A DNA stretch of 64,000 nt from Alkalihalobacillus sp. LMS39 (GTDB lineage: Bacteria; Bacillota; Bacilli; Bacillales; Bacillaceae_F): positions 1,984,001 through 2,048,000 of the forward strand of contig NZ_CP093300.1 of NCBI RefSeq assembly GCF_022812285.1, given 5' to 3'. The position numbers were made by a program, and so were the translations under genes. The stretch's first letter is position 1. The number at the start of each line of letters is the position of its first letter. This document shows positions 1,665 through 58,676 of this stretch, one piece after another. The notes under the pieces were generated by a model. It worked only from the letters and a program-made list of their open reading frames with translations, did no database searches and was not told where the DNA came from.

Positions 1665-1850
1665 TAACGGACATGTATTCCGCTATTGTATAGAAAAATG
1701 GCTAATTTGAAATCTTATCGGACATCTGTTCCGTTATTAACCGAAATTCATAATTGAGTTTGCTTGTTTTCGCCAAATAGCGGAACGTATGTCCGTTAAG
1801 AAGGTGAAACGAGGCAAAATCATTGAAATAACGGAACATATGTCCGAACG
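1665..1850. repeat. four-site intergenic repeat, copy 1
   Basis: Four 15-bp sites at 1668, 1719, 1781 and 1832 (first base of each). The first two read CGGACAT..TTCCG and the last two are their reverse complements. Spacings are 51, 62 and 51 bp. The copy lies between the convergent ends of the tetR gene and the ABC permease. Short reading frames inside it are not credible genes. Confidence 0.9.
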
Positions 1851-1864
1851 ATGCTCAAAACCTG

Positions 1865-2473
1865 TCATTCTCCTTTTTTACTATAAATATAGATGGATAG
1901 CAGCCAAGAACAAACATAAAGGAAAGATGCGCTACCTATTATTAATAAAAATACTTGGGCGTCTTCTAACATGAGTAATGTATGCATGAAGTCTCTAACT
2001 CTATCATGTAAGTTAGGAATAAACAGAGTGACAGTGATTAAATACAAAGCCAACAATCCAATTCCAGCAAAGGTTAGATACTGTGTTTTAAAACGGTAAG
2101 AAAAAGGAAAGTAAAATGAAGTAAATACCATCACTAGAGATAAAATGAGTAACGGTTCTTTCCATGGCAATATTTCTTGATGGAAAATGAGATGGCCGAT
2201 AAATATGATAAAAATAAAAATCGCTGTAAAAATGAATGTGCCGGCATATTTTGAACTTACAATTTCTTTTCGTGTATAGGGAAGGGAATTTAATAGAACA
2301 TGTATCGTTGGTTTCTCATCCATGACAAAAACATTCATAATCGTGGCGATACTAAATACGACTCCAAACCAGATGCTTGCTGGTTCAAGAAATAATATCA
2401 TGAGCAAAATAGGAATCAAGATTAGTAGGGTATATTTTTGTAAAAGTAAATCTTTACGAATGAGCGTGTACAT
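1865..2473 (-). CDS. ABC-2 type transporter permease
   Basis: A 202-residue integral membrane protein with about six hydrophobic segments and a short cytoplasmic N-terminus (MYTLIRKDLLLQKY), typical of ABC-2 permeases encoded with YtrA-type regulators. Its start overlaps the end of the upstream ATPase gene by 20 nt, so the two are translationally coupled. With that ATPase it should form an exporter or bacitracin/lantibiotic-type resistance transporter; the substrate is unknown. It is the last gene of a gntR-ATPase-permease operon and ends 15 nt from repeat copy 1. Confidence 0.8.
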   Translation of the reverse strand: MYTLIRKDLLLQKYTLLILIPILLMILFLEPASIWFGVVFSIATIMNVFVMDEKPTIHVLLNSLPYTRKEIVSSKYAGTFIFTAIFIFIIFIGHLIFHQEILPWKEPLLILSLVMVFTSFYFPFSYRFKTQYLTFAGIGLLALYLITVTLFIPNLHDRVRDFMHTLLMLEDAQVFLLIIGSASFLYVCSWLLSIYIYSKKGE

Positions 2474-3335
2474 TTAGATTTTCCCCTTTCTTCGTATAAT
2501 ACATAATATCTTCAAGGCTTGGTTTCTCGATTAACGCCATTTCTCCAAACATTAACTGAACCCGTGTTTTGTTTGCAGTTAAGCCCTCAAAACCATGATT
2601 TGATTTGCGGACAGCGATAAATTCCTGTTCTGTATCGCGATCTAATAAGTCCATACTACCTTTAACAATCGCGTATTCTTCTTCGATTTGATAGAATTCC
2701 TTCGTGAAAATATGCTCACCATTATGGATAAACGTAATATAATCAGCAATTCGATCTAAATCAGTTGTAATATGAGTCGAGAAAAAAATCGTTTTCTCTC
2801 CGTCTTGCATGAGTGAATGGAGGATGTCTAACAGTTCTCGTCGGAAAATAGGGTCTAAACCAGAAGTTGGTTCATCCATAATAATTAATTCGGCATGATG
2901 CGATAGCGCAATCGTCAAGGAAGCTTTCATCATCATCCCTTTTGAGAACGTTTTTAACCTTTTATTAAGTGGCAATTCAAATGTTTTCACGTATTCATAA
3001 AACACATCGTCATCCCAATTTGTATAAGCGGGTTTAATGATTTTTTTCAATTCTGCAAGAGTGATTTGTTCATAAAAAATGTTTTCATCAAAAACAAAGC
3101 CTATCCGTTGCTTGATTGCTTTTTCATGCTCTTTATACTTCAAGCCGAAGACAGAAACCGACCCCGAATCTGGTTGCAATAAATTCATAATGAGCTTAAT
3201 TGTCGTTGATTTTCCAACCCCATTTCCACCGATAAACCCTGTTACAAATCCTTTTTTCACATTAAGGGAAAAATCCTTTAATTGAAATCCAGCAAATGAT
3301 TTTTGAATATTATTTAATTCAATAATATTTTCCAT
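2454..3335 (-). CDS. ABC transporter ATP-binding protein
   Basis: A 293-residue ATPase with Walker A GGNGVGKST near residue 36, a signature-like FSKGMMMK near residue 130, Walker B LIIMDEPTSGLDP and H-loop STHIT. The C-terminal 80 residues form an accessory region outside the nucleotide-binding domain. Its start codon overlaps the stop of the GntR gene (TAATG), and its 3' end overlaps the permease start. It energises the ABC-2 permease. The gene set resembles ytrA-ytrB type cassettes of B. subtilis, but orthology is not claimed. Confidence 0.9.
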   Translation of the reverse strand: MENIIELNNIQKSFAGFQLKDFSLNVKKGFVTGFIGGNGVGKSTTIKLIMNLLQPDSGSVSVFGLKYKEHEKAIKQRIGFVFDENIFYEQITLAELKKIIKPAYTNWDDDVFYEYVKTFELPLNKRLKTFSKGMMMKASLTIALSHHAELIIMDEPTSGLDPIFRRELLDILHSLMQDGEKTIFFSTHITTDLDRIADYITFIHNGEHIFTKEFYQIEEEYAIVKGSMDLLDRDTEQEFIAVRKSNHGFEGLTANKTRVQLMFGEMALIEKPSLEDIMYYTKKGENLNVHAHS

Positions 3336-3712
3336 TAGTCTTCCTCCTTATATAACATCGTAAGTAATTCCTGTAATTCTGTAAGCGAGACGTCAATTTC
3401 TTTACTGTTTTGAATGACAGTTAATAATTGTTCTTCAATGACTTGCATCTTTCGTTCTTTCATCATTTCTTTGTTTTGTTCGGCGACAAAAGATCCTTTC
3501 CCGACAACCGAATATATGAAGCCGTGTTTTTCGAGTTCTTCATAAGCCCGTTTTGTCGTAATGACACTGATGGCCAACTCCTTAGCGAGTTGACGCATAG
3601 AAGGAAGAGGTTCTCCGGCCTTTAACTTGTTTGATAAAATTTGCTTCTTAATTTGTGTAAAAATTTGCTCGTAAATCGGTTCTTTCGAATGATTTGAAAT
3701 GATGATTTCCAT
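3335..3712 (-). CDS. GntR family regulator, YtrA subfamily
   Basis: Starting at the ATG at 3712 gives 125 residues, the normal size of YtrA-type regulators: an N-terminal winged helix (SMRQLAKELAISVITTKRAY, about residues 35-65) and a short helical tail. An in-frame extension to 3817 runs through the operator-like dyad and adds a sequence foreign to the family, so it was rejected. First gene of the operon with the ABC ATPase and permease. Such proteins repress their own operon, and the dyad just upstream supports this. Confidence 0.87.
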   Translation of the reverse strand: MEIIISNHSKEPIYEQIFTQIKKQILSNKLKAGEPLPSMRQLAKELAISVITTKRAYEELEKHGFIYSVVGKGSFVAEQNKEMMKERKMQVIEEQLLTVIQNSKEIDVSLTELQELLTMLYKEED

Positions 3713-3739
3713 AGGAAAACCTCGCTCGTTGGATTGATA

Positions 3740-3762
3740 TTGTATATGTACAATATATACAA
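3740..3762 (-). promoter_or_regulatory. candidate GntR operator
   Basis: A 23-bp near-palindrome TTGTATAT-N7-ATATACAA lies about 28 bp upstream of the GntR start. The position and AT-rich dyad suit a YtrA-type autoregulatory operator overlapping the promoter. Confidence 0.55.
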
Positions 3763-3790
3763 TATACTCATTGATTGCAACTTTTTTTAT

Positions 3791-3833
3791 GAAAAAAAGC
3801 TGTAAGGAAGAAATCAAATCTTCCTTACAGCTT
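3791..3833 (-). terminator. rho-independent terminator of the serine hydrolase gene
   Basis: A 15-bp perfect stem (3797-3811 with 3819-3833) has a 7-nt loop and, read on the reverse strand, is followed by seven T. It lies about 40 nt beyond the stop of the hydrolase gene. Confidence 0.88.
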
Positions 3834-3873
3834 ATTCTTTAGGGTTTTTTGCACATTATTTATTTTTGTGAAA

Positions 3874-5172
3874 CTAGCTTTCTTTCCAGATGATATAACG
3901 ATTGTTGTTATAGTCCTTATACTCAACCTGTTCAATTTTATTTGATGAAGAATAGTAAAAGGTGAGCTGCTCGTGAATCATTTCGGTTACAAACGTTGTC
4001 TTTGTTGACTGGTGTTCAATAGGAATTAGCTTAAATTTATTGCGAACTCCATATCGTTTTGGAACAATGAAGTAAAGTTCATTACGTTCAATGGTAATAT
4101 GTAATGTTGTTTCTTGATTTTCAAAACGATACGTTCCATTAAACGATGACAGGTTTGTATTAGGAATCGCTTTTGCTAGAGGAGGTACGGCAATTTTATT
4201 TTCGAATAATAGATTTGCGATTTCACGAGTGATTTGTGTGACAGGGGTTACATCGATATTACTAAGGAAAATAATCGTTACATTGTCTTCAGGAAAGCGA
4301 AGGAAATCATTTGAAAATCCACTTATATCACCGAAGTGGTGCAAACATCTCCGGTTTGAAATGTCAGAAACCACCCAACCACAAGCATAAGAACTTAAAT
4401 GTGGCGTAAACATCAAATCAGTGAGCTCTTTAGGAAGAAGTTGAGATGATGAGAGTGCCTTATCCCAAAGGTGTAAGTCCTCTGTTGTCGAATAAAGTCC
4501 ATAAGCCCCTAATGGAAAAGAAAGGTCCGCATAAGCAGAATGGATTGGTGTTTCCCAATAAGAATAACCAGAAGCTAATTGCGGAACGACCTGAATCCCG
4601 TCATCACAACCAGTATTAACCATCCCTAATGGTCGACAGATATTTTCTAGAATGTAATCAGAATAAGACATATTGGAGACGTGCTCAATAATGGCAGTCA
4701 GGATAGCATAGCCAGAATTTGAGTATTCAAATCGACTTCCAGGATTAAAGTGGAGTTCAAGGTCTTTAAAAGAATCAATCAATTGCGGTAATGTGGAAGG
4801 AAGTCTCATTGTTGTCGACCAAAAGTCAGGAAAGCTTGTGTAATTAGGAATACCTGATGTATGGGTTAAACAGTTGTATATCGAGATACGATCGCCATTT
4901 GGATAGGCAGGAATATACCTAGTAATATTGTCGTTAACATTTAGCTTTCCTTTTTCGTGCAATTGAAAAATAGCAAGGGCGGTAAATGCCTTTGTTAGGG
5001 AACCAATTCGATATTTTGTCGTTGCAGTATTTGAAACATGGTGTTCCCAATTTGCAAAACCAAAGCCTTGATTTAACAATATTTTGTCATGATAACGAAT
5101 GAAAAGTGAACCATTCAAATACTTATTTTCTTCGAATCTTTCAACCCAATTCTCTAGTTTTTCCTCTAACAA
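3874..5172 (-). CDS. serine hydrolase of the beta-lactamase / class C PBP family
   Basis: The core motifs are all present: SLTK (catalytic Ser and Lys of SxxK), YSN (YxN box) and a HFGDISG segment in the KTG/HxG place. A C-terminal beta-rich domain of about 110 residues follows. Members hydrolyse amide or ester bonds, often as D-amino-acid peptidases or esterases. No signal peptide is visible. The TTG at 5172, 7 nt after GAGGGG, is preferred; an ATG at 5244 would add 24 residues but has no ribosome-binding site. The true substrate is unknown. A strong terminator follows. Confidence 0.82.
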   Translation of the reverse strand: MLEEKLENWVERFEENKYLNGSLFIRYHDKILLNQGFGFANWEHHVSNTATTKYRIGSLTKAFTALAIFQLHEKGKLNVNDNITRYIPAYPNGDRISIYNCLTHTSGIPNYTSFPDFWSTTMRLPSTLPQLIDSFKDLELHFNPGSRFEYSNSGYAILTAIIEHVSNMSYSDYILENICRPLGMVNTGCDDGIQVVPQLASGYSYWETPIHSAYADLSFPLGAYGLYSTTEDLHLWDKALSSSQLLPKELTDLMFTPHLSSYACGWVVSDISNRRCLHHFGDISGFSNDFLRFPEDNVTIIFLSNIDVTPVTQITREIANLLFENKIAVPPLAKAIPNTNLSSFNGTYRFENQETTLHITIERNELYFIVPKRYGVRNKFKLIPIEHQSTKTTFVTEMIHEQLTFYYSSSNKIEQVEYKDYNNNRYIIWKES

Positions 5173-5289
5173 CGATAATCCCCTCGATTCTCTTAAAAAA
5201 AAGACATGACTTTTTGGAAAAATTTGATATGCTAAGTGTATCATAAGCTAACAAAATAAATAATAGAATTTGAAAGGGGCATGGTTCAA

Positions 5290-5643
5290 ATGAAGAAAAT
5301 GGGGTTTTCTCTTTTTATTTTGATGTTGCTTTTTATAACAGGATGCAATGAACAACAAGAAACAAAAGCCGGAGCAGACTATAAACCGATGATATCAACC
5401 GAAAGTGAGATTTTCGGCGATACTGGAAATGTAGAGAATGAATTGTCAAAGGAGTGGAAGGAACTAGGGGAAGTGAAACAACAGGTTTCCCAAACTGAAC
5501 CAATGATACTAGGAGCTGCGTATATATCGAACACACTCCCCGTTGGTACTAAAATCTTTGCTGATGAGCAACAAAAAGATTTCATTTATGCGGAATACAA
5601 TAACAAGTATATAGAATATGAAGCACTAGAGAGTAACAGGTAG
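5290..5643 (+). CDS. small lipoprotein, paralogue of the one at 33861
   Basis: From the ATG at 5290 (GAAAGGGG 10 nt upstream) the product has 117 residues, with an N-terminal hydrophobic signal and lipobox LFITGC, so it should be lipid-anchored outside the membrane. The C-terminal segment (TLPVGTKIF ... YAEYNNKYIEYEALE) aligns with the lipoprotein at 33861 and with a fragment near 36280. The ATG at 5281 lies too close to the ribosome-binding site. Function unknown. Confidence 0.72.
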   Translation: MKKMGFSLFILMLLFITGCNEQQETKAGADYKPMISTESEIFGDTGNVENELSKEWKELGEVKQQVSQTEPMILGAAYISNTLPVGTKIFADEQQKDFIYAEYNNKYIEYEALESNR

Positions 5644-5659
5644 ATACTCTCTAGTTTTT
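5626..5659 (+). terminator. terminator of the lipoprotein gene
   Basis: A 10-bp perfect stem (5626-5635 with 5645-5654) followed by TTTTT. It overlaps the end of the lipoprotein gene and the stop of the convergent lysR gene. Confidence 0.8.
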
Positions 5660-6493
5660 CCTTGTCAAGATATCCAAGAAAGCTTTTACTTGTGGAAGGT
5701 CTGTTGCGTTTTCGGAATAACTAATCCAAGTCGGTCGTGAGATGTGTGTCTCTTGTGAAATTAACGGATGGATATTATAAAGACTAGTGTCTAAATCGGT
5801 GATGGCCGACTCAGGTAAGATGGCCATTCCGATTCCATGTAACATTAGTTGTTTACATGTTTCGATTTGATCGACGGTTATTTTTTTAGTTGGCCGCCAA
5901 TTAGGGTGGTCGGTGAGCCATTCATCGACAACAGAGTGAAAACTAGGATCACTTTTAAATTCAATTAATAGTTTTTCTTTTTTAACATCTTTTCTTTCAA
6001 TGATATAAAGTTTATCGGAAAAAAGGTGATGGCTTTGCCTATCTTGTATTTTTTCTCCTCGAATAATGGCGATATGATACTGGTTGATGGAATGACGGAT
6101 ATCTTGGCTTAAACCGGTAAACAGTTCAATGTTAACTTGAGGGTACTGTTCGATATAAGATTCAAGAATTTCTGGAAGCAGGTATTGACCGACAACGGAA
6201 GAAACACCTAACGATAATCTTCCCATCACTTCGTTTGTTGATTTTGAAATCTCATCTAGTAGTTTTGTTTCGCGCTCAATTAGTTCTTCTCCAAATTCAA
6301 TAATTTTTTCACCCGCGGGTGTGATGAGAAGTTTTTTTTTTGTTCTTATAAAAAGTTTCTCACCCCAGTGTTCCTCGATTTGTTTCACCCTTTGACTAAT
6401 CGCAGGTTGCGATAGATGTAATGCTTTAGCAGCGCCTCTAATTGTCCCTACATTTTTAATTGCGATCAACAATCGGTATTCATCTATTTTCAT
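5651..6493 (-). CDS. LysR family transcriptional regulator
   Basis: A 280-residue protein with the LysR helix-turn-helix at residues 15-45 (GAAKALHLSQPAISQRVKQIE), a linker helix, and a periplasmic-binding-like effector domain (about 90-280). The domain order and length are normal. Divergent from the methyltransferase gene with two dyads between them, so it may control that gene as well as itself. The effector cannot be inferred; the cysL/ccpC branch is a guess only. Confidence 0.88.
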   Translation of the reverse strand: MKIDEYRLLIAIKNVGTIRGAAKALHLSQPAISQRVKQIEEHWGEKLFIRTKKKLLITPAGEKIIEFGEELIERETKLLDEISKSTNEVMGRLSLGVSSVVGQYLLPEILESYIEQYPQVNIELFTGLSQDIRHSINQYHIAIIRGEKIQDRQSHHLFSDKLYIIERKDVKKEKLLIEFKSDPSFHSVVDEWLTDHPNWRPTKKITVDQIETCKQLMLHGIGMAILPESAITDLDTSLYNIHPLISQETHISRPTWISYSENATDLPQVKAFLDILTRKN

Positions 6494-6509
6494 TTTTGTC
6501 TCCTTATGT

Positions 6510-7929: not shown

Positions 7930-8112
7930 TATGGACATCTATTCCTCTATTTCGTGAAATCACGTACCTTTTTCATTTCTTACGGACATACGTTCCGTTA
8001 ATTAACGAAAAGAGTGATGAAAACAGGCTGATTCTTTAAAATAGCGGAACGTATGTCCGTAAGCTTTTGAAAAATGTTACTTTTTCTGAAAATAGCGGAA
8101 CAAATGTCCGAT
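7930..8112. repeat. four-site intergenic repeat, copy 2
   Basis: Sites start at 7932, 7983, 8045 and 8096, giving spacings of 51, 62 and 51 bp, the same as copy 1. The first site is degenerate (TGGACATCTATTCCT). Between the convergent trmO and FtsW-like genes, after the trmO terminator. Confidence 0.9.
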
Positions 8113-16071: not shown

Positions 16072-16256
16072 TTTCGGACATCTATTCCGCTATTCCATTA
16101 AAAATATGCCCTGTTGAATTCTTTACGGACATCTGTTCCGTTATATCGCCAAAACAGGGATGGAAACAAGCTAAATTGGCCAGATAACGGAACCTATGTC
16201 CGATAACTTTTGAAAAATGCCCTTTTTTTATAAAATAGCGGAACAGATGTCCGAAA
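16072..16256. repeat. four-site intergenic repeat, copy 3
   Basis: Sites begin at 16075, 16126, 16188 and 16239: spacings 51, 62 and 51 bp. Site 1 ends CCGCTAT and pairs exactly with ATAGCGG before site 4, while site 2 (CCGTTAT) pairs with ATAACGG before site 3. This gives a nested dyad. It starts 34 nt after the SH3 gene stop. Confidence 0.92.
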
Positions 16257-16549: not shown

Positions 16550-17011
16550 ATGCATAAATCAGAAAAAATTTGGCTTTCATTAAGTTTTGGTATGATTTTA
16601 CTTTTTATGATTGCAACGGGGTATCAAGCTTTTGCATTAGGGATGGCACCGCCAGGAGGGATGGAAACAATTGATCCGCAAAAAGTCGATGAAACCGCAC
16701 CTTTTGATAATCCAGGAATCACGCAAATTGGTGAAAATGAATTTGAAGTCGTCATGGTGTTAGAACTGTATCGCTTTACGCCTGCTGACCTTGAAATTCC
16801 GGCTGGCGCTACGGTTCATTTCAAATTAACGTCAAAAGATGTGATTCATGGTTTTCAAATTGTAGGTACAAACGCGAATGGAATGGTTATGCCAGGTTAT
16901 GTATTAACTATGACACAAACCTTTACTGAGCCAGGAGAATATTTGGTGCTGTGCAATGAATTTTGTGGTGCGGGTCATCAGTTTATGGCAACGACAATTA
17001 TCGTGAAATAA
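16550..17011 (+). CDS. cytochrome c oxidase subunit II, ba3-type (CuA)
   Basis: A 153-residue protein with a single N-terminal membrane anchor and an extracellular cupredoxin domain. The CuA ligands are present: His in DVIHGFQI and CNEFCGAGHQFM (two Cys, His, Met). Having one helix rather than two is the ba3 form. It accepts electrons from cytochrome c outside the membrane. The ATG at 16550 follows AGGGGGAG; an upstream extension was rejected. Subunit I follows after an array of eight hairpin repeats instead of the usual short gap. Confidence 0.92.
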   Translation: MHKSEKIWLSLSFGMILLFMIATGYQAFALGMAPPGGMETIDPQKVDETAPFDNPGITQIGENEFEVVMVLELYRFTPADLEIPAGATVHFKLTSKDVIHGFQIVGTNANGMVMPGYVLTMTQTFTEPGEYLVLCNEFCGAGHQFMATTIIVK

Positions 17012-17427
17012 AGTGTCCTTCATAAGAGTGATGAAGGACAAAACAGCGTGAAAAAGCAAGAGAAGTGTTCTTCATAAGGGTAATGAAGGACAAAACAGCG
17101 TGAAAAAGCGAGAGAAGTGTCCTTCATAAGGATAATGAAGGACAAAACAGCGTGAAAAAGCAAGAGAAGTGTCCTTCATAAGGGTAATGAAGAACAAAAC
17201 AGCGTGAAAAAGCAAGAGAAGTGTCCTTCATAAGGGTAATGAAGGACAAAATAGCGTGAAAAAGCAAGAGAAGTGTCCTTCATAAGGGTAATGAAGGACA
17301 AAACAGCGTGAAAAAGCAAGAGAAGTGTCCTTCATAAGAGTAATGAAGGACTAAACAGAGTGAAAAAGCAAGAGAAGTGTCCTTTATAAGAGTAATGAAG
17401 GACACAATAGCGTGAAAAAGCAGGGGG
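17012..17427 (+). repeat. eight tandem 52-bp hairpin repeats inside the oxidase operon
   Basis: Eight consecutive units of exactly 52 bp, beginning right after the subunit II stop and ending at the ribosome-binding site of subunit I. Each carries a hairpin GTCCTTCAT-N7-ATGAAGGAC followed by the linker AAACAGCGTGAAAAAGCAAG. Units differ by only a few bases and some changes weaken the stem. No T-tract follows a stem, so these are not simple terminators. The last unit changes to CAGGGGGGAGTC, which makes the subunit I Shine-Dalgarno. Confidence 0.95.
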
Positions 17428-17434
17428 GAGTCTT

Positions 17435-19111
17435 GTGGAAGCAGTTCATACAGAAAGTAGACATAAAATCAATGAAGTGTTAGGTGTCAATGTGGAAGAT
17501 GCGAAGTTAGCGAAATCCTATTTATTTGTAGCTTTTATTGCGTTGCTTTTGGGTGGTTTTTTTGGCTTGCTTCAAGGATTAAATCGTGCGGGTTTGCTTG
17601 ATTTGCCACTATGGTTTACTTATTATCAAGCATTAACGGCACATGGCATCTTATTAGTCGTTATCTTTTCGGGATTTTTTATGATTGGTTATTTTTATTC
17701 GTGTCTTTCTCACACCCTCGGAGGACTTCTTCCTAAAGTAAGGAAGATGGGGTGGGTCGGTTTTGGCTTAAGTATGTTTGGTACGGTATTAGTCGTAATT
17801 ATGGTGCTCATGAACGAAGCGTCTGTATTGTACACATTTTATCCACCGATGAGGGCGAATCCGATTTTTTATATAGGATTAGTTTTTGTCGTATTAGGAA
17901 TATGGATGTGTTGTTTTGGCGCATTTATTCAAGTTGCGAATTGGAGAAAACGCCATAAAGGTCAGCACCTTCCCATCTTAGCTTTCTTTAGTACTGGCGC
18001 TTTCGTATTGCTATTAGGGGCAACGGTGTTTGTTGCAGTTGAAGTTCTGTTTCTTATTCTTCCGTGGTCCCTTGGTTGGGTGGATACTATTAATGTGATG
18101 CTCGCACGGACATTGTTTTGGGCATTTGGGCATACTGCGGTCAATATTTGGTATTTAACAGCTGTTTCTGCCTGGTATGTCGTTGTTCCGAAAGTGATTG
18201 GTGGGACGCTTTGGAATGACACGTTAACCCGTGTCGTCGTGATCGCTTTAGTCATTATGAACATTACAGGTGGATTCCATCATCAAATTGTTGACCCTGG
18301 TATTTCAGATTCTATTAAATATATGCATGTATTTATGAGTTTAGCGATCGGTTTTCCTTCGTTAATGACGGCTTATGCTTTATTTGTTGTAATGGAGCGA
18401 ACGGGTAGAAGAAAAGGAGGAAAAGGGGTATTTGGTTGGCTTAAAAAATTGCCATGGGGTGACGTTCGCTTCTTAGCGCCATTCATTGCCATGCTTGCCT
18501 TTATTGCAGGAGGAGCGGGTGGCATCGCTCAAACTACATTTCAATTAAATTCGGTTGTTCACAATACAATGTGGGTAGTCGGGCATTTTCACCTTACTCT
18601 TGGTATGTCAGTAGCGATGACATTCTTTGGCATTAGCTATTGGTTAATCCCTTATTTATCAGGTAGAGTCTTAACCCCTACGATGAATAAAGTTGGGATA
18701 TGGCAAACGATTGTCTGGTCAGTTGCTATGATAATAATGTCATTTGCGATGCATGCAGCAGGATTATTCGGCTCTCCGCGAAGAACATCATTTACAACAT
18801 ATGGCGATCATGCCGCAGCACTTGGCTGGGATCCTTATATGATGGCGATTGGAATTGGTGCCGTGCTGCTATTAATTAGTGTTGTTATCCAAGTGTATGC
18901 GGTCATCCATTTGATGTTTTTTGCGCCGATTGGAAAAACAGAATTTCCGATTGCAGAAAAAGAGCCTGGTGACAAATCAGGATATTGGACAGAACGATGG
19001 GGTGTTTGGGTTGTCCTTATGATGATTGTTGTTGCGATGGCGTACGTTGTCCCGATCGTGGATATGATCGTGAATGCACCACCTGGATCGCCACCATTTA
19101 GAACATGGTAA
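17435..19111 (+). CDS. cytochrome c oxidase subunit I, ba3-type
   Basis: A 558-residue protein with about 13 transmembrane helices. Haem and CuB ligands can be seen: TAHG (low-spin haem His), FGHTAVNIWY (CuB His), the HH pair in GGFHHQIVD and VGHFHLTLG (haem ligands). The lack of the usual D-channel pattern and the companion small subunits indicate the B-family. It reduces oxygen to water and pumps protons. GTG start with AGGGGGGAG 4-9 nt upstream. High-affinity B-type oxidases serve at low oxygen or high pH. Confidence 0.95.
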   Translation: MEAVHTESRHKINEVLGVNVEDAKLAKSYLFVAFIALLLGGFFGLLQGLNRAGLLDLPLWFTYYQALTAHGILLVVIFSGFFMIGYFYSCLSHTLGGLLPKVRKMGWVGFGLSMFGTVLVVIMVLMNEASVLYTFYPPMRANPIFYIGLVFVVLGIWMCCFGAFIQVANWRKRHKGQHLPILAFFSTGAFVLLLGATVFVAVEVLFLILPWSLGWVDTINVMLARTLFWAFGHTAVNIWYLTAVSAWYVVVPKVIGGTLWNDTLTRVVVIALVIMNITGGFHHQIVDPGISDSIKYMHVFMSLAIGFPSLMTAYALFVVMERTGRRKGGKGVFGWLKKLPWGDVRFLAPFIAMLAFIAGGAGGIAQTTFQLNSVVHNTMWVVGHFHLTLGMSVAMTFFGISYWLIPYLSGRVLTPTMNKVGIWQTIVWSVAMIIMSFAMHAAGLFGSPRRTSFTTYGDHAAALGWDPYMMAIGIGAVLLLISVVIQVYAVIHLMFFAPIGKTEFPIAEKEPGDKSGYWTERWGVWVVLMMIVVAMAYVVPIVDMIVNAPPGSPPFRTW

Positions 19112-21714: not shown

Positions 21715-21950
21715 AAAAGACCACACTCATCCCAACTAAAGGGACGAATGTGGTCGTGGTTCCACCCTAATTCCATAAAACAAATTCTAGTTTTATGCTC
21801 AAGTAAGATAACGGTTTTCCCGGTTATAGATACTCTATACAAGTATATTTCCCTATAACAGCTCCGAGGTGGTAAATCATTTGCTTTTCTTCAGGGCTCT
21901 CAGCCAATGACCCTGTTCTCTGGAAAGAAAACAACAATTGTTTCATGTCC
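21715..21950 (-). promoter_or_regulatory. T-box leader (threonine), proximal
   Basis: Read on the reverse strand it has the T-box motif GGGTGGAACCACG (near 21755-21770), a terminator hairpin ending in T6 (to about 21715), and an upstream stem I with the AGAGAACAGGGTC start. A codon-like ACC in TTTACCACC sits in the specifier position (about 21875). An uncharged tRNA(Thr) would stop termination and allow thrS expression. Confidence 0.88.
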
Positions 21951-21967
21951 TCATCTACGCCAATCTA

Positions 21968-22215
21968 TTTTTTTGTATAAAAAAACGCACTTATCCCAAC
22001 TAAAAGGGACGAGTGCGGTCGTGGTTCCACCCTGATTCCATAAAAAGACGAACTTTTTATGCTCAAGAAAAGATAACGGATTACCCGATTATAGATACTC
22101 TAAAAAGATATTTCCCTATAATAGCTCAAAGGTGGTAAACCATCCTGTTTTCTTCGGGGCTTGCAGCCAGTGACCCCGTTCTCTGGAAAGAAAAATTGAA
22201 ATGATTCATGTCCTT
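21968..22215 (-). promoter_or_regulatory. T-box leader (threonine), distal
   Basis: A second full T-box upstream of the first: T-box motif GGGTGGAACCACG (about 22019-22033), terminator ending in T7 at about 21975, stem I beginning AGAGAACGGGGTC and specifier ACC in TTTACCACC (about 22135). It is closely similar to the proximal one, which suggests a tandem duplication. Confidence 0.88.
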
Positions 22216-22220
22216 ATCAC

Positions 22221-22685
22221 AGCTTCGTTTGATGTGTGATTAAATATTGTTTTTTATTGTAATCTATAGAAATGTGAAAAGCAAGTAGTTATTTTTGAAA
22301 AATACGAATTGTGGATGTGATTTTATAAAGAGAGTGAAGAATGACGAAGTGTTAATTTATTATATTATTTTAAAGTTATATTAGATAATCGATAACTTAT
22401 TTTATTGAGGCTATTATAAGATGATATATTCAGTTTAATACCACATATTTTCAATGCATATGTCAAAAAGAACGTGAGGAAAATACTATTTTTTCAAGTG
22501 TTATGATTATTATTAATTTGTCATTGAAAGTAATTGAATATTCTGTTATTTTATTAATATCAAAGTTAAGTAAACGATTGCTTTGATTTTGGTGACTTCG
22601 TGGACATTAATTTTTTAAAAAGGGGGGAAGACTCTTATTTTTATGTTCATGAATCAAACTATTAAAAAAATGAGGAGTGATTTAT
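22221..22685. other. AT-rich divergent spacer between thrS leader and mannanase
   Basis: No gene and no long open frame. It should hold the thrS promoter (reverse) and the mannanase promoter (forward). Candidate forward promoter 22524-22552 (TTGAAA, 17 bp, TATTTT). See the cre-like site. Confidence 0.4.
22569..22582 (+). promoter_or_regulatory. cre-like site upstream of mannanase
   Basis: AGTAAACGATTGCT reads on the reverse strand as AGCAATCGTTTACT, keeping the G-N-A-A-N-C-G core of the CcpA catabolite site with both end bases changed. It lies 17 bp after the candidate promoter, where CcpA would block transcription when glucose is present. Weak match. Confidence 0.35.
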
Positions 22686-27301: not shown

Positions 27302-27486
27302 TAAAGGACATCTATTCCGCTATATTAAAGAAAATGCCTTTTTTCACATGCTATCGGACATCTGTTCCGTTAAACTAGAAAAAAGAGTGGCTCTTAAAGA
27401 TAGTTTACATGAAATAACGGAACGAATGTCCGTATGAAATCAAAAAAGGCATGATTTTCACGAAATAGCGGAATAGATGTCCGTAA
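27302..27486. repeat. four-site intergenic repeat, copy 4
   Basis: Sites begin at 27305, 27355, 27418 and 27469: spacings 50, 63 and 51 bp, so the first pair is one base closer and the middle one base wider. The first site has A for the initial C and the last has GAATAG for GAACAG. It lies after the yheD-like terminator. Confidence 0.88.
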
Positions 27487-39171: not shown

Positions 39172-39358
39172 TAACGGACATTTATTCCGCTATATTGTGA
39201 AAAAGAGGCGTTTTTCATTTTTTATTGGACACCTGTTCCGTTAATTCCTCAAAATCGTGGTCAAAACCAATAGGTTTCTATGATTTAGCGGAACTGATGT
39301 CCGTTAGCATTCTCAAAACGTTACTTTTTCTTGAAATAGCGGAAAATATGTCCGAACG
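39172..39358. repeat. four-site intergenic repeat, copy 5
   Basis: Sites begin at 39175, 39226, 39289 and 39340: spacings 51, 63 and 51 bp. Site 2 is degenerate (TGGACACCTGTTCCG) and site 4 reads CGGAAAATATGTCCG. It starts 14 nt after the small membrane protein stop and about 100 nt before comGA. Confidence 0.9.
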
Positions 39359-44480: not shown

Positions 44481-44620
44481 GTAACGGACATCTGTTCCGC
44501 TATTGATGGGAATAGGCAAGAATTCATTCGAAAATGTCACCATTAGCGGAACAGGTGTCCCTTAGCTTTTGGAAATCGTGTGTTTTTACTAAAATAACGT
44601 ACTGTATGTCCGAACGCTTG
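44481..44620. repeat. intergenic repeat, copy 6 (three sites)
   Basis: Only three sites, beginning at 44485, 44547 and 44598, with spacings of 62 and 51 bp. This equals the last three positions of the four-site copies, so the first site is missing. The final site is eroded (CGTACTGTATGTCCG). Confidence 0.85.
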
Positions 44621-49970: not shown

Positions 49971-50156
49971 CTAACGGACACCTGTTCCGCTAAATCAACG
50001 AAAATACCCAATTATTCAATGCTATCGGACATACGTTCCGCTAAATGAGTAAAATGAGCGACTTTGCCTCTCTTTTTGGCCTGTTAACGGAACGTATGTC
50101 CGTAAGACTTTCAACAAGACTCATTTTACATGAAATAGCGGAATGTATGTCCGTTA
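49971..50156. repeat. four-site intergenic repeat, copy 7
   Basis: Sites begin at 49975, 50026, 50088 and 50139: spacings 51, 62 and 51 bp. It starts 22 nt after the DUF2268 gene's stop and is followed by the HIT gene promoter region. Confidence 0.92.
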
Positions 50157-51523: not shown

Positions 51524-51560
51524 AAGAAGCCGTGAGTCCAATCTATCACGGCTTCTTTCT
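51524..51560 (+). terminator. terminator after the PP2C-like gene
   Basis: A 12-bp perfect stem AAGAAGCCGTGA (51524-51535) with TCACGGCTTCTT (51546-51557), then TTC. Confidence 0.82.
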
Positions 51561-51562
51561 TA

Positions 51563-51649
51563 GTGAGGGAGTATAAAAAATTGGGTCTAGCAATGAAGCA
51601 TTGAAAGCTTATTCTGAAACGAAAGTACGCTCCCGTGTTTTTCTTATTG
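51563..51649 (+). repeat. family-2 intergenic repeat, copy b
   Basis: Begins GTGAGGGAGTATAAAAAATT, then the core TAGCAATGAAG and CTCCCGTGTTTTTCTTATT. Its right end overlaps the last codons of the convergent yqhG gene. Confidence 0.75.
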
Positions 51650-52441: not shown

Positions 52442-54101
52442 CTCCCTCCTCAAGCTCTTCTTTTGCTACTTCATTGATAATGGCTGTTAAATGGTCCATT
52501 TTTACTTTGATCTCACCATCTGAATCAGAGTGATACAGAATTTCTTGAATATGGTCTTCGAGTGAAGGAAGCTCTAGCTTTGATAAAATATCATCTAATT
52601 CACCGATCACACTTTCAAACAAATTAATTTTTTCATAGAGAAGAGAAAGGATGTGCTGCTCAATTGTATCTTCCACGGCAAAATTATAAATGCGAACATC
52701 TTCTTTTTGACCGAGACGATGAATTCGGCCAATCCGTTGTTCAATCCGCATTGGGTTCCATGGAAGGTCATAATTAATAATGTGACTACAAAATTGTAGA
52801 TTAATCCCTTCACCACCCGCTTCTGTTGCAATTAATACTTGGGCATGGTTTTGGAACAGCTGCCGCATCCAGTCTTTTTTACCGCGTTTAAAGCCACCTC
52901 GGAATGGGACAGAGGAAATGCCGTTTTGTTTTAAATACCATTGTAAATATAATTGAGTTGCTCGATATTCGGTGAAGATAATAACTTTCCCATTAATTTG
53001 TTTTATAATCTCTAACGCTTTTTCCGCTTTTGAATTTACGGAAATATTGCCAATCATCTCCATAAAGCTTTCCGCTTGTGGAATCGTTTTATTTTCCTCT
53101 TGCGCCTTTTCAATCATATTTTTCAAGGTCATAAAGGCGGCTTCACGACTAGAACATATTTCACGCTGCAATGTTAAGAGTGCAAAATGATTTGTAAGAA
53201 TGTCTTTATTTTCTTTTAAAGCGGAAATCGCATCATAAAGCTCACGTTCTTCTTTGCTAAATGTAATAGGAACAGTCTCTACAATCCGTTTTGTCCAAGT
53301 GATTCCCGTTTCTTCACGGCGATTGCGGACCATTACTTTATTAACCAATTCTCGCAATTGTTCTTCGTTTTTCGGTGAGCGCTTTCCTGAGCGGTATGAT
53401 TTTTCAAACGAAGATAAATCACCAAGATGACCTGGTTTTAATAAAGATACGAGATTAAAGATTTCTTCGAGTTTGTTTTGCACTGGTGTTGCCGTTAATA
53501 GCAAACAAAACTTTTTCTTTAGCTTTTTCACAAATTCATAATTTTTAGTTTTCGGATTTTTTAATTTGTGAGCCTCGTCAATAATGATGAGATCATAGTC
53601 TTGTTCCATGACAATGTCATAGTGAGGCTGTCGTTTCGCTGTATCCATCGACGCGACAACAACATCAAACTGTTCCCACACATACGCTTTCTTTTGCGCG
53701 ACTGCCGGAATATGAAACTTTTGATTTAATTCATAAGCCCATTGTGAAACAAGAGAAGCGGGAACGAGAATGAGTGCTTTCTTTACAAGTCCTCGAATCA
53801 TATATTCTTTTAAAATAAGGCCAGCTTCGATTGTTTTTCCTAGCCCTACTTCATCCGCTAAAATCGCTTTTCCATTCATTTTTTCAATAACCGTATTGGC
53901 AACTTCGATTTGATGTGGGTACGGTTCAAGCTGTGGTAGATGCTTTGGTGCTTGTAAGCCTTGAAACTCTGGAACAGCTAAATGTTGTACTGCTTCATAG
54001 GCAAGTTGAAACAACTCCCAATTAGACCATGGCCCGTCCTCATCTAATCTTTTTATAAATTCATCTTGCCACGATTGAGAAAATTCAATTTCTATGTTCA
54101 T
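52416..54101 (-). CDS. yqhH: SNF2-family DEAD-like helicase/ATPase (YqhH)
   Basis: A 561-residue SF2 ATPase: motif I DEVGLGKTIEAG near residue 80, motif II IIDEAHKL near 175, motif III LTATPVQN near 205, motif V ATEAGGEGINLQF near 415 and VI QRIGRIHRLGQ near 450. ATP-driven remodelling of a nucleoprotein is expected; the target is unknown. The ATG at 54101 has AGAAAGGATG upstream; a further in-frame extension was rejected as non-coding. Order yqhH-yqhG beside gcvT is as in B. subtilis. Confidence 0.92.
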   Translation of the reverse strand: MNIEIEFSQSWQDEFIKRLDEDGPWSNWELFQLAYEAVQHLAVPEFQGLQAPKHLPQLEPYPHQIEVANTVIEKMNGKAILADEVGLGKTIEAGLILKEYMIRGLVKKALILVPASLVSQWAYELNQKFHIPAVAQKKAYVWEQFDVVVASMDTAKRQPHYDIVMEQDYDLIIIDEAHKLKNPKTKNYEFVKKLKKKFCLLLTATPVQNKLEEIFNLVSLLKPGHLGDLSSFEKSYRSGKRSPKNEEQLRELVNKVMVRNRREETGITWTKRIVETVPITFSKEERELYDAISALKENKDILTNHFALLTLQREICSSREAAFMTLKNMIEKAQEENKTIPQAESFMEMIGNISVNSKAEKALEIIKQINGKVIIFTEYRATQLYLQWYLKQNGISSVPFRGGFKRGKKDWMRQLFQNHAQVLIATEAGGEGINLQFCSHIINYDLPWNPMRIEQRIGRIHRLGQKEDVRIYNFAVEDTIEQHILSLLYEKINLFESVIGELDDILSKLELPSLEDHIQEILYHSDSDGEIKVKMDHLTAIINEVAKEELEEGDERATASN

Positions 54102-54225
54102 GGCGATCATCCTTTCTAAAAAAAATAGTATTGCCTTCTTAGTCAGCAATTGGTAGGATATTATTATATTTAGTATGGTCAAAATAATAAATTTTATAAA
54201 AAAATCGTATATAGGCGAATGAAAG

Positions 54226-54402
54226 TAAGGGGAGAGACTGCAAAATGTTCGTAAAATGCAGCGCCGAAGGAGCAAGCGAAAGCGAATCTCTCAGGCAAAA
54301 GAACTCTTACTCGACGCAACTCTGGAGAGCGTTCAAAATGAACCACCCACGAAGACATTTCTTACGAAAGTAAGAAAGAAACTTTCTGGTAACAGGACAG
54401 AG
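54226..54402 (+). promoter_or_regulatory. tandem glycine riboswitch
   Basis: The leader of gcvT holds two glycine aptamer-like parts. The first runs through GGGGAGAGAC, GCCGAAGGAGCAA and AATCTCTCAGGCAAAAGAAC (about 54230-54305); the second starts near CGCAACTCTGGAGAGCG and ends TTTCTGGTAACAGGACAG (about 54312-54400). Glycine binding should favour expression of the glycine cleavage operon. The hairpin just after it would be the expression platform. Confidence 0.9.
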
Positions 54403-54439
54403 GAATACAAAGAATATTTGTATTTCTCTGTCTTTTTTT
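54396..54439 (+). terminator. attenuator of the gcv riboswitch
   Basis: A 15-bp stem starting GACAGAG (54396) and ending CTCTGTC (54426-54432), followed by seven T. It overlaps the last aptamer bases, so ligand binding can prevent its folding. Confidence 0.85.
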
Positions 54440-54516
54440 CGTTTTTTGAGTGGGATCTAGAGAATTAAGCCGTTTGTTTTCGCTGACAATACATAAAAAC
54501 GAAGGAGGACAAATGT

Positions 54517-55611
54517 ATGGCAAATGGAAACCAAACTCCGTTGTATCCGTTGTATGAACAATATGGTGGAAAGACGATTGATTTCGGTGGCTGGGATTTA
54601 CCTGTTCAATTTTCAAGTATAAAAGAAGAACATGAAGCTGTTCGTACCAAAGCGGGACTCTTTGATGTATCTCATATGGGGGAAGTGGAAGTAAAAGGAG
54701 AAAAAGCCCTTGAGTTCCTTCAATATGTGATGACAAATGATATTTCTAAACTTCAAGACAATCAAGCTCTTTATACGGTGATGTGTTATGAAAACGGAGG
54801 AACCGTTGATGACCTTCTTGTGTACAAAAAGAAAGACAATGAGTATTTACTTGTTGTGAATGCAGCCAATATTGAGAAAGACGTTGCTTGGTTGCTAGAA
54901 CATAAAGTTGAAGGAGTATCTGTTACGAATAAGTCAGATGAGTTGGCTTTACTTGCTTTGCAAGGACCGGTAGCAGAACAAGTTCTTCAACGGCTAACAG
55001 ATGTTGATTTATCAGCGATTCGCTTTTTCTGGTTTGCCGATAATGTGACCATCGCAGGAAAACAAGTTCTAGTTTCAAGAACAGGATATACAGGTGAAGA
55101 TGGATTTGAGCTTTACTGTAAGGCAGAAGACGCAACGAGCTTGTGGAAAGCCATTTTAGAAGAAGGGAAACAAGAAGGTGTTCTCCCATGTGGCTTAGGC
55201 GCACGTGATACCCTTCGTTTTGAAGCGAAACTACCTCTTTATGGTCAAGAACTATCAAAAGAGATTTCACCGCTTGAAGCTGGGATTGGCTTTGCCGTGA
55301 AGCTGAACAAAGAAGCTAATTTTATCGGGAAAGACGCATTGAAAAAACAAAAAGAAGATGGCTTGACTCGTAAATTAGTAGGAATTGAAATGATGGATAA
55401 GGGCATCCCAAGAACAGGTTATGAAGTGTTTGTCCAAGATAACAACATTGGGACGGTGACAACAGGAACACAATCACCAACATTAAAACGCAATGTTGGA
55501 TTAGCGCTATTACAAAAAGAATTTACAGAACTTGACCAAGAAATCGAAGTCCAAGTAAGAAAAAAACGGTTAAAAGCCAAAGTCGTAAAAACACCATTTT
55601 ATAAACGATAA
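54517..55611 (+). CDS. gcvT: aminomethyltransferase (glycine cleavage T protein)
   Basis: A 364-residue tetrahydrofolate-dependent T protein. [11 protein letters not shown] near residue 47, [11 protein letters not shown] near 95, [14 protein letters not shown] near 190 and [11 protein letters not shown] near 228 are diagnostic. It takes the aminomethyl group from lipoylated H protein and gives methylene-THF plus ammonia. AAGGAGG lies before the ATG; gcvPA follows 18 nt later. H protein gcvH is not in this window. Confidence 0.96.
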
Positions 55612-55629
55612 GGATGAGGGGGAAAACCA

Positions 55630-56979
55630 ATGTCATTTCGATATTTACCAATGACAGAACAAGATAAAAAAGACATGCTCGACTCAATCGGTGTCCAATC
55701 AATTGAGGAGCTATTTTCAGATATACCAGAAGATATTCGATTTAAAGGACAGTTAAACATTAAAGAAGCATTAACAGAGCCAGAGCTTGTTCGATATTTA
55801 CAAGGATTAGCGAATAAAAATACAAATGTAAAACAAAAGCCGTCTTTTTTAGGGGCAGGTGTGTATGAGCATTATATCCCTTCTGTAGTAGACCATGTCA
55901 TTTCTCGTTCTGAATTTTATACGGCGTATACACCGTATCAACCAGAAATTTCTCAAGGCGAATTGCAAGCGATTTTTGAATTTCAATCGATGGTTTGTGA
56001 ATTAACGGGGATGGATCTTGCCAATTCTTCTATGTATGATGGTCCAACAGCATTAGCAGAAGCCGCTATGATGTGTGCAGGTCAAACGCGTAAGAAAAAA
56101 GTCCTTGTGTCCAAAGCTGTTCATCCTGAAGCAAGAGATGTATTAAAAACAAATGCAAAGGGTCAAAACGTAACCGTTATTGAAGTGGATATTGCCGATG
56201 GGATAACGGATATTGAAGATTTAAAACAAAAATATGATGGAGAAACAGCATGTGTCATTGTTCAATACCCAAACTTCTTTGGTGCCATTGAAAATTTAGC
56301 GGAGATTGAAGAAATTACCCATGCCCAAAAAGGAATGTTTGTCGTTTCTAGTAACCCAGTTGCGCTAGGAGCGTTAAAATCACCAGGTGAGTACGGTGCA
56401 GATGTTGTTGTTGGAGATGCGCAACCTTTTGGGATTCCAACTCAATTTGGCGGACCGCATTGTGGTTATTTTGCCGTTACAACAAAGCTTATGAGAAAAG
56501 TACCTGGTCGTTTAGTTGGTCAAACTGTTGATGATGAAGGTCAACGAGGATTTGTATTAACACTGCAAGCACGTGAACAACATATTCGTCGTGAGAAAGC
56601 AACATCAAATATTTGTTCAAACCAAGCATTAAATGCTTTAGCCGCTTCTGTGGCCATGAGCGCAATTGGCAAACAAGGAGTTCGTGATATGGCCGTACAA
56701 AATATTCAAAAAGCGGCCTACATGAAAAAGCAATTACAACAACAAGGAGTATCGATTGCCTTTTCCACACCGACTTTTAATGAGTTTGTCGTAAAACTAA
56801 ATCAAAGTGTGGCTGATGTAAATGCTTCGTTGTTTGCAGAAGGATTTATCGGTGGATATGACTTAGGTCGTGATTATCCTGAATTAGCTGGACATGTGTT
56901 ATTATGTGTAACGGAAATTCGTACAAAAGAAGAGATTGACCAATTTGTGAATGTACTTGGGAAGGTGAATAACAAATGA
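55630..56979 (+). CDS. gcvPA: glycine dehydrogenase (decarboxylating) subunit 1
   Basis: A 449-residue subunit, the N-terminal half of P protein in organisms that split it. [20 protein letters not shown] and [11 protein letters not shown] segments are typical. It forms a heterotetramer with gcvPB to decarboxylate glycine. Overlaps gcvPB by 4 nt (ATGA). Confidence 0.96.
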
Positions 56980-58433
56980 AGGATCAGCCGTTAATTTTTG
57001 AACTTAGCAAAGAAGGAAGAATTGGACATAGTTTACCCCCTTGTGATGTAGAAGAAATAGCGTTAGAGGATGTAATTCCTGCTGAATATATACGAACTTC
57101 TGAACCAGAATTACCGGAGGTTTCTGAGCTTCAATTAATGCGTCACTATACGGCTTTATCAAAGAGAAACCATGGTGTAGACTCTGGGTTTTATCCGCTT
57201 GGGTCGTGTACGATGAAATATAATCCGAAAATTAATGAAGATGTTGCTCGTTATGACGGGTTTGCGCATATTCACCCTCATCAAGAGGAGTCTCAAGTCC
57301 AAGGAGCATTGGAATTATTATATGAATTACAAACATCTTTAGCTGAAATTACTGGAATGGATGAAGTCACGTTACAACCAGCAGCTGGCGCACATGGGGA
57401 ATGGACGGGATTAATGTTAATTCGGGCTTTCCACGAAAAAAATGGTGATACGAACCGAACAAAAGTTATCGTACCTGATTCAGCCCATGGTACAAACCCA
57501 GCTTCTGCAACAGTGGCAGGCTTTGATTCCATTACCGTTCGTACAAATGAGCATGGATTAGTTGACCTTGACCATTTACGTGAAGTAGCTGGCCCTGATA
57601 CAGCTGCACTTATGTTAACAAACCCAAATACGCTTGGTTTATTTGAAGAGTATATTGTGGAAATGGCCAAAATCATTCATGATGCAGGTGGAAAACTGTA
57701 TTATGATGGAGCAAACTCTAACGCAATCTTAGGAATTGCTCGCCCGGGTGACATGGGATTTGATGTTGTTCACTTAAACTTGCATAAAACATTTACTGGC
57801 CCACATGGTGGAGGCGGACCTGGTTCAGGCCCTGTCGGAGTGAAAAAAGATTTGATTCCGTTTTTACCAAAGCCAGTTATCGTGAAAAAAGGAGACCACT
57901 ATGGATTTGATTATGATCGTCCAGAGTCGATTGGTCGAGTGAAACCGTATTACGGAAACTTCGGCATTAACGTTCGTGCATACACATACATCCGCACGAT
58001 GGGACCTGAAGGATTACGTCTTGTATCTGAATATGCGGTTTTAAATGCGAACTATATGATGAGACGCTTAGAGCCATATTTTGATTTGCCTTATGGTCAG
58101 CATTGCAAACATGAATTTGTCTTATCTGGTCGTCGCCAAAAGAAACTAGGTGTTCGTACACTTGATATCGCAAAACGCTTATTAGATTTCGGCTATCATC
58201 CACCAACGATTTACTTCCCGCTTAACGTAGAAGAGTGTATGATGATTGAACCAACAGAAACAGAAGCAAAAGAAACATTAGATGAATTTATTGAGGCGAT
58301 GATTCAAATCGCAAAAGAAACAGAAGAAAATCCTGAAATCGTTCAAGAAGCACCACACCATACTGTAATTGGTCGCCTTGATGAAACGTTAGCCGCGAGA
58401 AAACCGGTGTTACGATATCAGAAAGCAGAATAG
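56976..58433 (+). CDS. gcvPB: glycine dehydrogenase (decarboxylating) subunit 2
   Basis: A 485-residue PLP-binding subunit. The cofactor Lys lies in LNLHKTF near residue 270, followed by [14 protein letters not shown]. Start overlaps gcvPA by 4 nt. Last gene of the riboswitch-regulated operon; a terminator follows. Confidence 0.96.
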
Positions 58434-58438
58434 GGTGA

Positions 58439-58475
58439 GAAGGTGAGCTCTGATTGTGGCTCGCCTTCTTTTTTT
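58439..58475 (+). terminator. terminator of the gcv operon
   Basis: A 10-bp stem GAAGGTGAGC (58439-58448) with GCTCGCCTTC (58459-58468), with one G-T pair, and nine T in the tail region. Confidence 0.87.
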
Positions 58476-58490
58476 AGAGGAGGGGTGTCG

Positions 58491-58676
58491 TAACGGACAT
58501 ATGATCCGCTATTTTAGCGAAAATAGAGGTTTTCGATTCGCTATCGGACATGTGTTCCGTTACTTGTTGTTTTGTTGGCTTGAGAAGCTTGATTTTGCTG
58601 AAATAGCGGAACAGATGTCCGTAACTTGTTTGAAAAACTCGTATTTGGCAAATATAACGGAACACATGTCCGGTAG
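58491..58676. repeat. four-site intergenic repeat, copy 8
   Basis: Sites begin at 58494, 58545, 58607 and 58658: spacings 51, 62 and 51 bp. It starts right after the gcv terminator. Here site 1 (CCGCTAT) pairs best with site 3 (ATAGCGG) and site 2 (CCGTTA) with site 4 (ATAACGG), unlike copy 3. Confidence 0.92.

What the first reader, a model, noticed from the sequence alone, without database searches (positions are those of the whole stretch)
1665..58676. Eight copies of a four-site element with nearly fixed 51-62-51 bp geometry, always after a gene's 3' end
Copies at 1665, 7930, 16072, 27302, 39172, 44481, 49971 and 58491. Each carries 15-bp sites near CGGACATNTGTTCCG (two direct, two inverted). 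Site-to-site distances are 51, 62 and 51 bp in five copies and differ by one base in two others, although the spacer bases vary. All lie within about 70 nt of a stop codon, after any terminator, and every copy is absent from genes. The site is a quasi-palindrome (CGGA-CA...TG-TTCCG). The fixed spacing suggests a structured RNA, a binding array for a DNA-binding protein, or a mobile element that depends on it. I know no named family with this layout.
Basis: seen in the sequence. Interest (0 to 1): 0.85.

Follow-up and report, generated by a model that had tools for sequence, protein, structure and literature searches.

The report
Curved four-site DNA wrapping repeat
Hundreds of gene ends in this bacterium carry a 180-letter DNA repeat whose four binding sites and bend-prone tracts all sit on one face of the helix, a layout shared by distant relatives, which suggests that an unknown protein wraps the DNA there.

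Summary
Seven full copies and one truncated copy lie in the window; the 4.85-Mb host genome has an estimated 280-300. The 51-62-51 spacing recurs in nine further genomes of other genera, whose spacers are otherwise mostly unrelated. Of 88 copies examined, 39 lie between convergent genes, 46 between tandem and 3 between divergent genes.

Structured RNA is not supported: spacers show no covariation, and only 10 of 108 flanking 3' ends have an intrinsic terminator inside the element. Instead, AAA/TTT tracts recur about every 10.2 bp. At 10.25 bp per turn the four site centres and the tracts fall on one helical face (66 of 69 own copies and 43 of 43 from other genomes exceed shuffled spacers). In 16 orthologous pairs from a sister species, site cores changed at 3.0% of positions and spacers at 10.2%.

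Best reading: a sequence-encoded, nucleosome-like wrapping site for an unidentified protein, spread as an intergenic repeat. A transposon-ends (MITE) reading stays open: copies multiplied within lineages, but I found no target duplication, no clean empty site in ten pairs inspected and no autonomous partner. The binding protein and the function are unknown. My searches found no named family with this layout.

The parts
1668..1846 (.). Full four-site element, 51-62-51 (sites at 1668+, 1719+, 1781-, 1832-)
7932..8110 (.). Full four-site element, 51-62-51 (7932+, 7983+, 8045-, 8096-)
16075..16253 (.). Full four-site element, 51-62-51 (16075+, 16126+, 16188-, 16239-)
27305..27483 (.). Full four-site element, 50-63-51 (27305+, 27355+, 27418-, 27469-)
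39175..39354 (.). Full four-site element, 51-63-51 (39175+, 39226+, 39289-, 39340-)
44485..44612 (.). Truncated element: B (44485+), C (44547-) and a degenerate D (44598-44612); A missing
49975..50153 (.). Full four-site element, 51-62-51 (49975+, 50026+, 50088-, 50139-)
58494..58672 (.). Full four-site element, 51-62-51 (58494+, 58545+, 58607-, 58658-)

Best explanation
The element is a DNA-level nucleoprotein site. Four near-identical dyadic sites (about TAWCGGACAYNNRTTCCGYTA) are arranged with two-fold symmetry (A, B direct; C, D inverted), 5, 6 and 5 helical turns apart, and the DNA between them carries A/T tracts in phase with the sites about every 10.2 bp. Shown here: geometry shared across genera, phasing, selection on site cores, gene-end location, no covariation. 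Inferred: a dimeric protein binds all four sites on one face and wraps the ~180 bp, probably as a left-handed coil that stores negative supercoils, as a nucleosome does. Also inferred: by sitting between transcription units, often convergent ones, the complex constrains supercoils or acts as a local boundary. Copies were dispersed in the past by an unidentified route and are now kept by selection on the sites.
For: Geometry: 36 of 43 full elements from nine further genomes are exactly 51-62-51 although gaps were searched over 47-55, 55-70 and 47-55; the other 7 are off by at most 2 in one gap (the loci had been fetched with a pattern fixing one 51). Phasing: at 10.25 bp per turn site centres have phases 0.68, 0.66, 0.71, 0.68 and tracts 0.66-0.85; the phased AAA/TTT vector sum exceeds the run-shuffled mean in 66 of 69 own elements (p 1e-12) and 43 of 43 others (p 2e-13); fitted period 10.20 bp (bootstrap 10.16-10.24) and 10.14 bp (10.12-10.16). 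Selection in place: in 16 orthologous pairs changes are 21/704 in site cores, 124/1213 in other spacer, 26/398 in tract windows, 197/2933 in flanks; core vs spacer p 1e-9, core vs flank p 9e-5, tract vs spacer p 0.03. Not RNA. Place: Fisher tests.
Against: No binding protein was identified and no experiment shows binding or wrapping. The family is patchy: 24 of 397 genomes of the order, 0 pattern matches in one same-genus genome, so it is dispensable. Neutral survival in harmless gaps would give a similar gene-end bias. Genes before elements are not in longer operons (p 0.997), which gives no support to supercoil relief. Outer sites A and D of one element are slightly more alike than expected (z 2.2). 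The bootstrap treats related copies as independent.
Confidence: 0.52

Rival explanations
1. A non-autonomous mobile element (MITE) made only of transposon ends: each end has two direct transposase sites, the two ends are inverted, and the fixed spacing and bending serve synapsis, as in IS21, Mu or Tn7 ends.
For: Layout matches the principle of IS21 ends: two direct repeats per end, each with two GC-rich parts around ~10 AT-rich bp, ends bent and wrapped as in negatively supercoiled DNA (PMC10122671 section 10). Each genome has its own spacer lineage, so copies multiplied within lineages. Copy number ranges from 0 to hundreds. Element-bearing repeats interrupt two tnpA copies in Rossellomorea.
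Against: No target duplication at any offset tested in 88 own and 43 other elements. No clean empty site in ten G000/G002 pairs inspected: 7 have the element in both species, 3 are partial deletions. No half-element pair framing a gene in the complete listing for Salibacterium and Gracilibacillus, read by eye (114 half-elements); the long inserts found in G000 are ISs inside elements. IS21 genes examined do not have the sites at their ends (10 loci). Site cores are under purifying selection in place. IS21 repeats are 23 bp apart, here 36.
Confidence: 0.28
2. A gyrase-attracting site like the BIME-2 elements of E. coli, placed after genes to remove positive supercoils.
For: Gene-end and convergent location. 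Five of ten 5S genes in the own genome have an element 47 nt after their end. The E. coli gyrase motif is symmetric with phased GC content, and gyrase sites are enriched downstream of rRNA operons (PMC6379681 passages).
Against: Period here is about 10.2 bp against 10.75 bp in the gyrase motif; the amplitude at 10.75 is 1.3 against 7.5-9.2 at 10.25. Sites here are strict 15-mers in a ~180-bp layout; the gyrase motif is 130 bp and degenerate. No link with operon length.
Confidence: 0.08
3. Neutral, REP-like palindromic relics without present function, left in places where they do no harm.
For: Patchy distribution; location where promoters are absent; four own copies split by ISs.
Against: Site cores change less than spacers and flanks in orthologues; geometry and phasing are held across genera.
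Confidence: 0.08
4. It works as RNA: a long 3'-end hairpin (A with D, B with C) that stabilises or processes transcripts.
For: The layout can fold as one long imperfect hairpin (inverted repeats). 70 of 108 flanking 3' ends had no detected terminator before the element, so some copies may be transcribed.
Against: No covariation between halves in spacers (0.491 against 0.491 shuffled) and no convincing pair in a half: of 3916 column pairs the top z (11.3) comes from an expected value near zero and the next is 3.6. Rfam has no match there at gathering level.
Confidence: 0.04

Closest known systems
BIME / BIME-2 (REP-based extragenic elements of enterobacteria)
   Same: Multi-site, partly palindromic intergenic repeats at gene 3' ends in hundreds of copies; BIME-2 binds gyrase (PMC6379681 passages; general features recalled).
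   Different: Four 15-bp sites at fixed 51-62-51 spacing with ~10.2-bp phased tracts; site lacks a GTAG tag; no Y1/RAYT gene flanked by sites in 7 loci examined, and none at all in Gracilibacillus.
E. coli gyrase binding motif
   Same: Symmetric, long, phased AT/GC content, gyrase found downstream of transcription units (passages).
   Different: 130 bp, period 10.75 bp and degenerate, against ~180 bp, ~10.2 bp and strict sites here.
IS21-family transposon ends (IstA sites)
   Same: Two direct repeats per end, two ends inverted, GC-rich contacts one turn apart with AT between, bent and wrapped DNA (PMC10122671 section 10).
   Different: Repeats 23 bp apart there, 36 here; element has no gene; IS21 copies examined lack the site.
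Nucleosome-positioning DNA
   Same: A/T tracts every ~10.2 bp over 150-180 bp with two-fold symmetry (nucleosome figures recalled).
   Different: Bacterial; specific 15-bp sites; no histone-fold gene (PF00808) in 8 genomes searched, 7 of them clear carriers.
bcr1 of the Bacillus cereus group; Bhal-1 of B. halodurans
   Same: Intergenic repeats of bacilli able to fold (PMC2267715 passages).
   Different: Listed sizes 167 (bcr1) and 74 (Bhal-1) with 31 and 36 copies; their sequences were not compared here.

Membership tests
REP / BIME mobilised by RAYT | Y1 transposase gene (PF01797) in carriers | tested here: not met
   Present in 5 of 6 genomes searched, absent from Gracilibacillus G270, which has 40 half-elements
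REP / BIME mobilised by RAYT | Transposase gene flanked by the repeats | tested here: not met
   0 of 7 loci scanned carry a site; two broken tnpA copies in Rossellomorea are interrupted by an element-bearing repeat, which is not flanking
MITE (DDE transposon derivative) | Terminal inverted repeats | tested here: met
   A/B and C/D are inverted repeats
MITE (DDE transposon derivative) | Target-site duplication | tested here: not met
   88 own and 43 other elements, repeats of 3-10 bp at offsets 0-17; no consistent signal
MITE (DDE transposon derivative) | Autonomous element with the same ends | tested here: inconclusive
   None in 1.256 Mb of G000, 0.79 Mb of G002, or the half-element listings of G278 and G270; other genomes not covered
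BIME-2-like gyrase site | Phased motif with the gyrase period (10.75 bp) | tested here: not met
   Period 10.20 and 10.14 bp against 10.75
BIME-2-like gyrase site | Gyrase cleavage in vivo | not testable with these tools
   needs Topo-seq
Structured RNA family | Covariation of paired positions | tested here: not met
Structured RNA family | Match to an Rfam family | tested here: not met
   Only two T-boxes and a glycine riboswitch in the window
Intrinsic terminator | Hairpin followed by T-run inside the element | tested here: not met
   10 of 108 flanking 3' ends (own detector)
Histone-wrapped DNA | Histone-fold protein in carriers | tested here: not met
   PF00808 in 0 of 8 genomes; controls ring in three archaea only; other histone-like families not searched
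Protein-wrapping DNA element (no named family) | Binding and wrapping by a protein | not testable with these tools
   needs footprinting

The most novel reading that the evidence does not exclude
A bacterial counterpart of a nucleosome-positioning sequence: a 180-bp DNA code with specific anchor sites every 5-6 turns and about one A/T tract per turn, wrapped by an unknown protein at hundreds of gene ends to store negative supercoils or to mark boundaries between transcription units, and spread between genomes as a repeat.
Probability: 0.35. Interest if true: 0.88.

Novelty: new variant of a known kind. Interest (0 to 1): 0.7.

Why it matters
Bacterial interspersed repeats are usually described as hairpins or transposon leftovers. 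This one carries a strict DNA-geometry code (site spacing plus one-face phasing) shared across genera, with site cores that change slowly in place. It gives a defined ligand with which to fish for an unknown DNA-wrapping protein, and a clean test of whether bacteria use sequence-encoded wrapping sites at the ends of transcription units.

Tried and rejected
RNA hairpin: each half was compared with its own and with other elements' partner halves, and all column pairs in a half were tested; no support. Intrinsic terminator: 10 of 108 3' ends have one inside the element. A terminator between gene and element is rarer (38/108) than after control 3' ends (255/481), though the windows differ in length.

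rRNA link as a general rule: 5 of 10 true 5S genes of the own genome have an element 47 nt after their end. An eleventh, weak 5S-like match (2268477-2268590, 40.5 bits) has one starting 49 nt after its end. None was detected at 26 5S loci from seven other genomes or in six further stretches beside 5S genes (G257, G270), with a 3-of-4-site detector. In G278 contig C36 two half-elements lie about 375 nt after a 5S gene and were missed by that detector, so worn copies can escape it. Contig-start copies of G278 that I first took for rRNA-adjacent are next to IS ends.

Empty sites: ten pairs inspected, none clean. Not every one of the 39 own and 36 sister copies with both flanks found was inspected. 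Target duplications: none. RAYT. Histone fold. IS21. Operon length: no link; the codon-usage test failed because no reference genes were in the sample, so its CAI line is meaningless. Viral contigs: 0 exact matches. Similarity of the site to the Bacillus LexA box is recalled and was not tested.

Paper searches. Site strings brought only papers that look unrelated in the rows listed (20 of 116, 15 of 310). Seen of papers: passages of PMC2267715, PMC3733652 and PMC6379681; passages and section 10 of PMC10122671; all others by listing only.
Full report
What is there. Each complete copy has two direct sites A, B and two inverted sites C, D near CGGACATNTGTTCCG. The whole genome (one contig, 4.85 Mb; the window is 1,984,001-2,048,000) has 1256 site matches against 155 for the reversed pattern, and 429 A-36N-B half-elements against 0 in the control. 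I read 1.256 Mb of it (and the window). Adjacent-site distances in the first 864 kb are 51 (65 direct, 62 inverted-direct), 62 (52) and 63 (18), the rest rare. In 1.256 Mb there are 88 full elements and none in the reversed control. Stretches not chosen for sites give about 283-305 per genome.

Relatives. The half-element pattern was found exactly in six named genera (Alkalihalobacillus bogoriensis, Rossellomorea marisflavi, Texcoconibacillus, Gracilibacillus lacisalsi, Bacillus suaedae, Salibacterium aidingense). With up to 2 mismatches it was found in 21 of 397 genomes of the order. With a looser pattern it was found in 24 of 397, 16 of 135 genera, with all control columns 0; a few of the weakest, such as G082, may be unrelated repeats. 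One same-genus genome (G001) has no pattern match and two degenerate copies in 400 kb, both in stretches chosen because they were known. In 43 distinct full elements from nine further genomes, with the gaps searched freely, 36 are exactly 51-62-51 and 7 are off by at most 2 in one gap. The loci had been fetched with a pattern that fixed one gap at 51. G278 and G270 each have their own spacer lineage, so copies multiplied within lineages, while sites and geometry are shared.

DNA rather than RNA. If the two halves paired as RNA or cruciform, spacer 1 should resemble the reverse complement of spacer 3 of the same element more than that of other elements. It does not: 0.491 against 0.491 in 65 elements. 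The outer sites are slightly more alike within an element (z 2.2); inner sites are not (z 0.7).

Helical phasing. AAA/TTT tracts recur at fixed places. At 10.25 bp per turn the site centres (7, 58, 120, 171) have phases 0.68, 0.66, 0.71, 0.68 and the tracts 0.66-0.85. The phased vector sum exceeds the run-shuffled mean in 66 of 69 own elements (p 1e-12) and in 43 of 43 others (p 2e-13). The fitted periods are 10.20 and 10.14 bp. 51, 62 and 51 bp are then 5, 6 and 5 turns. The statistics treat copies as independent, which related copies are not.

Selection in place. 48 elements were found in 0.79 Mb of G002. 39 of 88 own copies had both flanks in the stretches held of G002. In 16 clean pairs site cores changed at 21/704, the four inner site positions at 27/256, other spacer positions at 124/1213, tract windows at 26/398 and flanks at 197/2933. 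Of ten further pairs inspected, seven have the element in both species and three are partial deletions.

Place. Of 88 elements 39 lie between convergent, 46 between tandem and 3 between divergent genes; gaps of 60-800 bp without element are 80, 320 and 141 (Fisher p 2e-9 and 2e-7). 28% of convergent and 10% of tandem 3' ends with a gap of at least 60 bp carry one. 5 of 10 true 5S genes are followed by a terminator and, 47 nt after the 5S end, an element. A weak 5S-like match has one too. Of the other five, four run on into tRNA genes and one ends in a terminator without an element near. The five rRNA copies resemble each other and are not independent. Neutral survival in harmless places would give a similar bias, so location alone does not prove function.

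Mechanism. The best fit is a protein-DNA complex that holds four dyadic sites on one face and wraps pre-bent DNA. A 10.2-bp period is shorter than that of free DNA (about 10.5, recalled) and suits a left-handed coil; the E. coli gyrase motif has 10.75 (PMC6379681 passages). What the complex does is inferred: supercoil storage or a boundary between transcription units. Operon length gives no support for a role in relief of transcriptional supercoils. The main rival is a transposon made of ends only, with the IS21 synaptic complex as a model (PMC10122671). It lacks target duplications, clean empty sites and an autonomous partner in what was searched. The two are not exclusive: an old mobile repeat may have been kept as a wrapping site.

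Insertion targets. In the own sample four elements are split by ISs whose transposases look like IS110, IS256 (twice) and IS3 (family names recalled from the translations), each inside a half-element spacer. In Salibacterium five of seven contig starts read begin in IS-like sequence that abuts the inside of an element (by eye).

Limits. Genes and terminators were called with simple scripts; the protein is unknown; about three quarters of the own genome were searched by pattern only.

Noticed in passing
window 16959-17474; L125-L146 (G002); L124, L132 (G001): A second dispersed repeat: tandem units of 52 bp, each with a 25-bp palindrome (GTCCTTCAT-N7-ATGAAGGAC) and A-rich spacer. In 16 loci with matches 62 of 68 site distances are exactly 52; G001 has a variant.
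   Followed up: partly
G000 C1:1025023-1026941, 1790391-1791959, 1958201-1959768, 4126028-4127617: Four-site elements split by insertion sequences of three apparent families, each inside a half-element spacer: the element is a landing site.
   Followed up: partly
L052 near 237-686, L095 near 3590-4044 (Rossellomorea, G232): Two tnpA (Y1 transposase) gene copies are interrupted by a repeat unit that holds a four-site element, so copies inside genes do occur.
   Followed up: partly
L136, L138 (G001): Degenerate elements with the same layout but site variants such as CGGACACAGGATCCC, in a genome where the pattern finds none.
   Followed up: partly
G000 C1:2268477-2268590: A weak 5S-like match (40.5 bits), perhaps an rRNA operon remnant, is followed 49 nt later by an element.
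   Followed up: no
window 51541-51615, 60643-60767, 59114-59197: Another short dispersed repeat (TATAAAAAATT...AATGAAGC..TGAAAGC); similar inserts stand beside two own elements and are absent at the matching place in G002.
   Followed up: no
window 21737-21966 and 22002-22229 (-): Two T-box leaders in tandem, about 80% alike over a 121-nt stretch.
   Followed up: no
window 54219-54316 (+): Glycine riboswitch aptamer upstream of the open frame at 54517.
   Followed up: no
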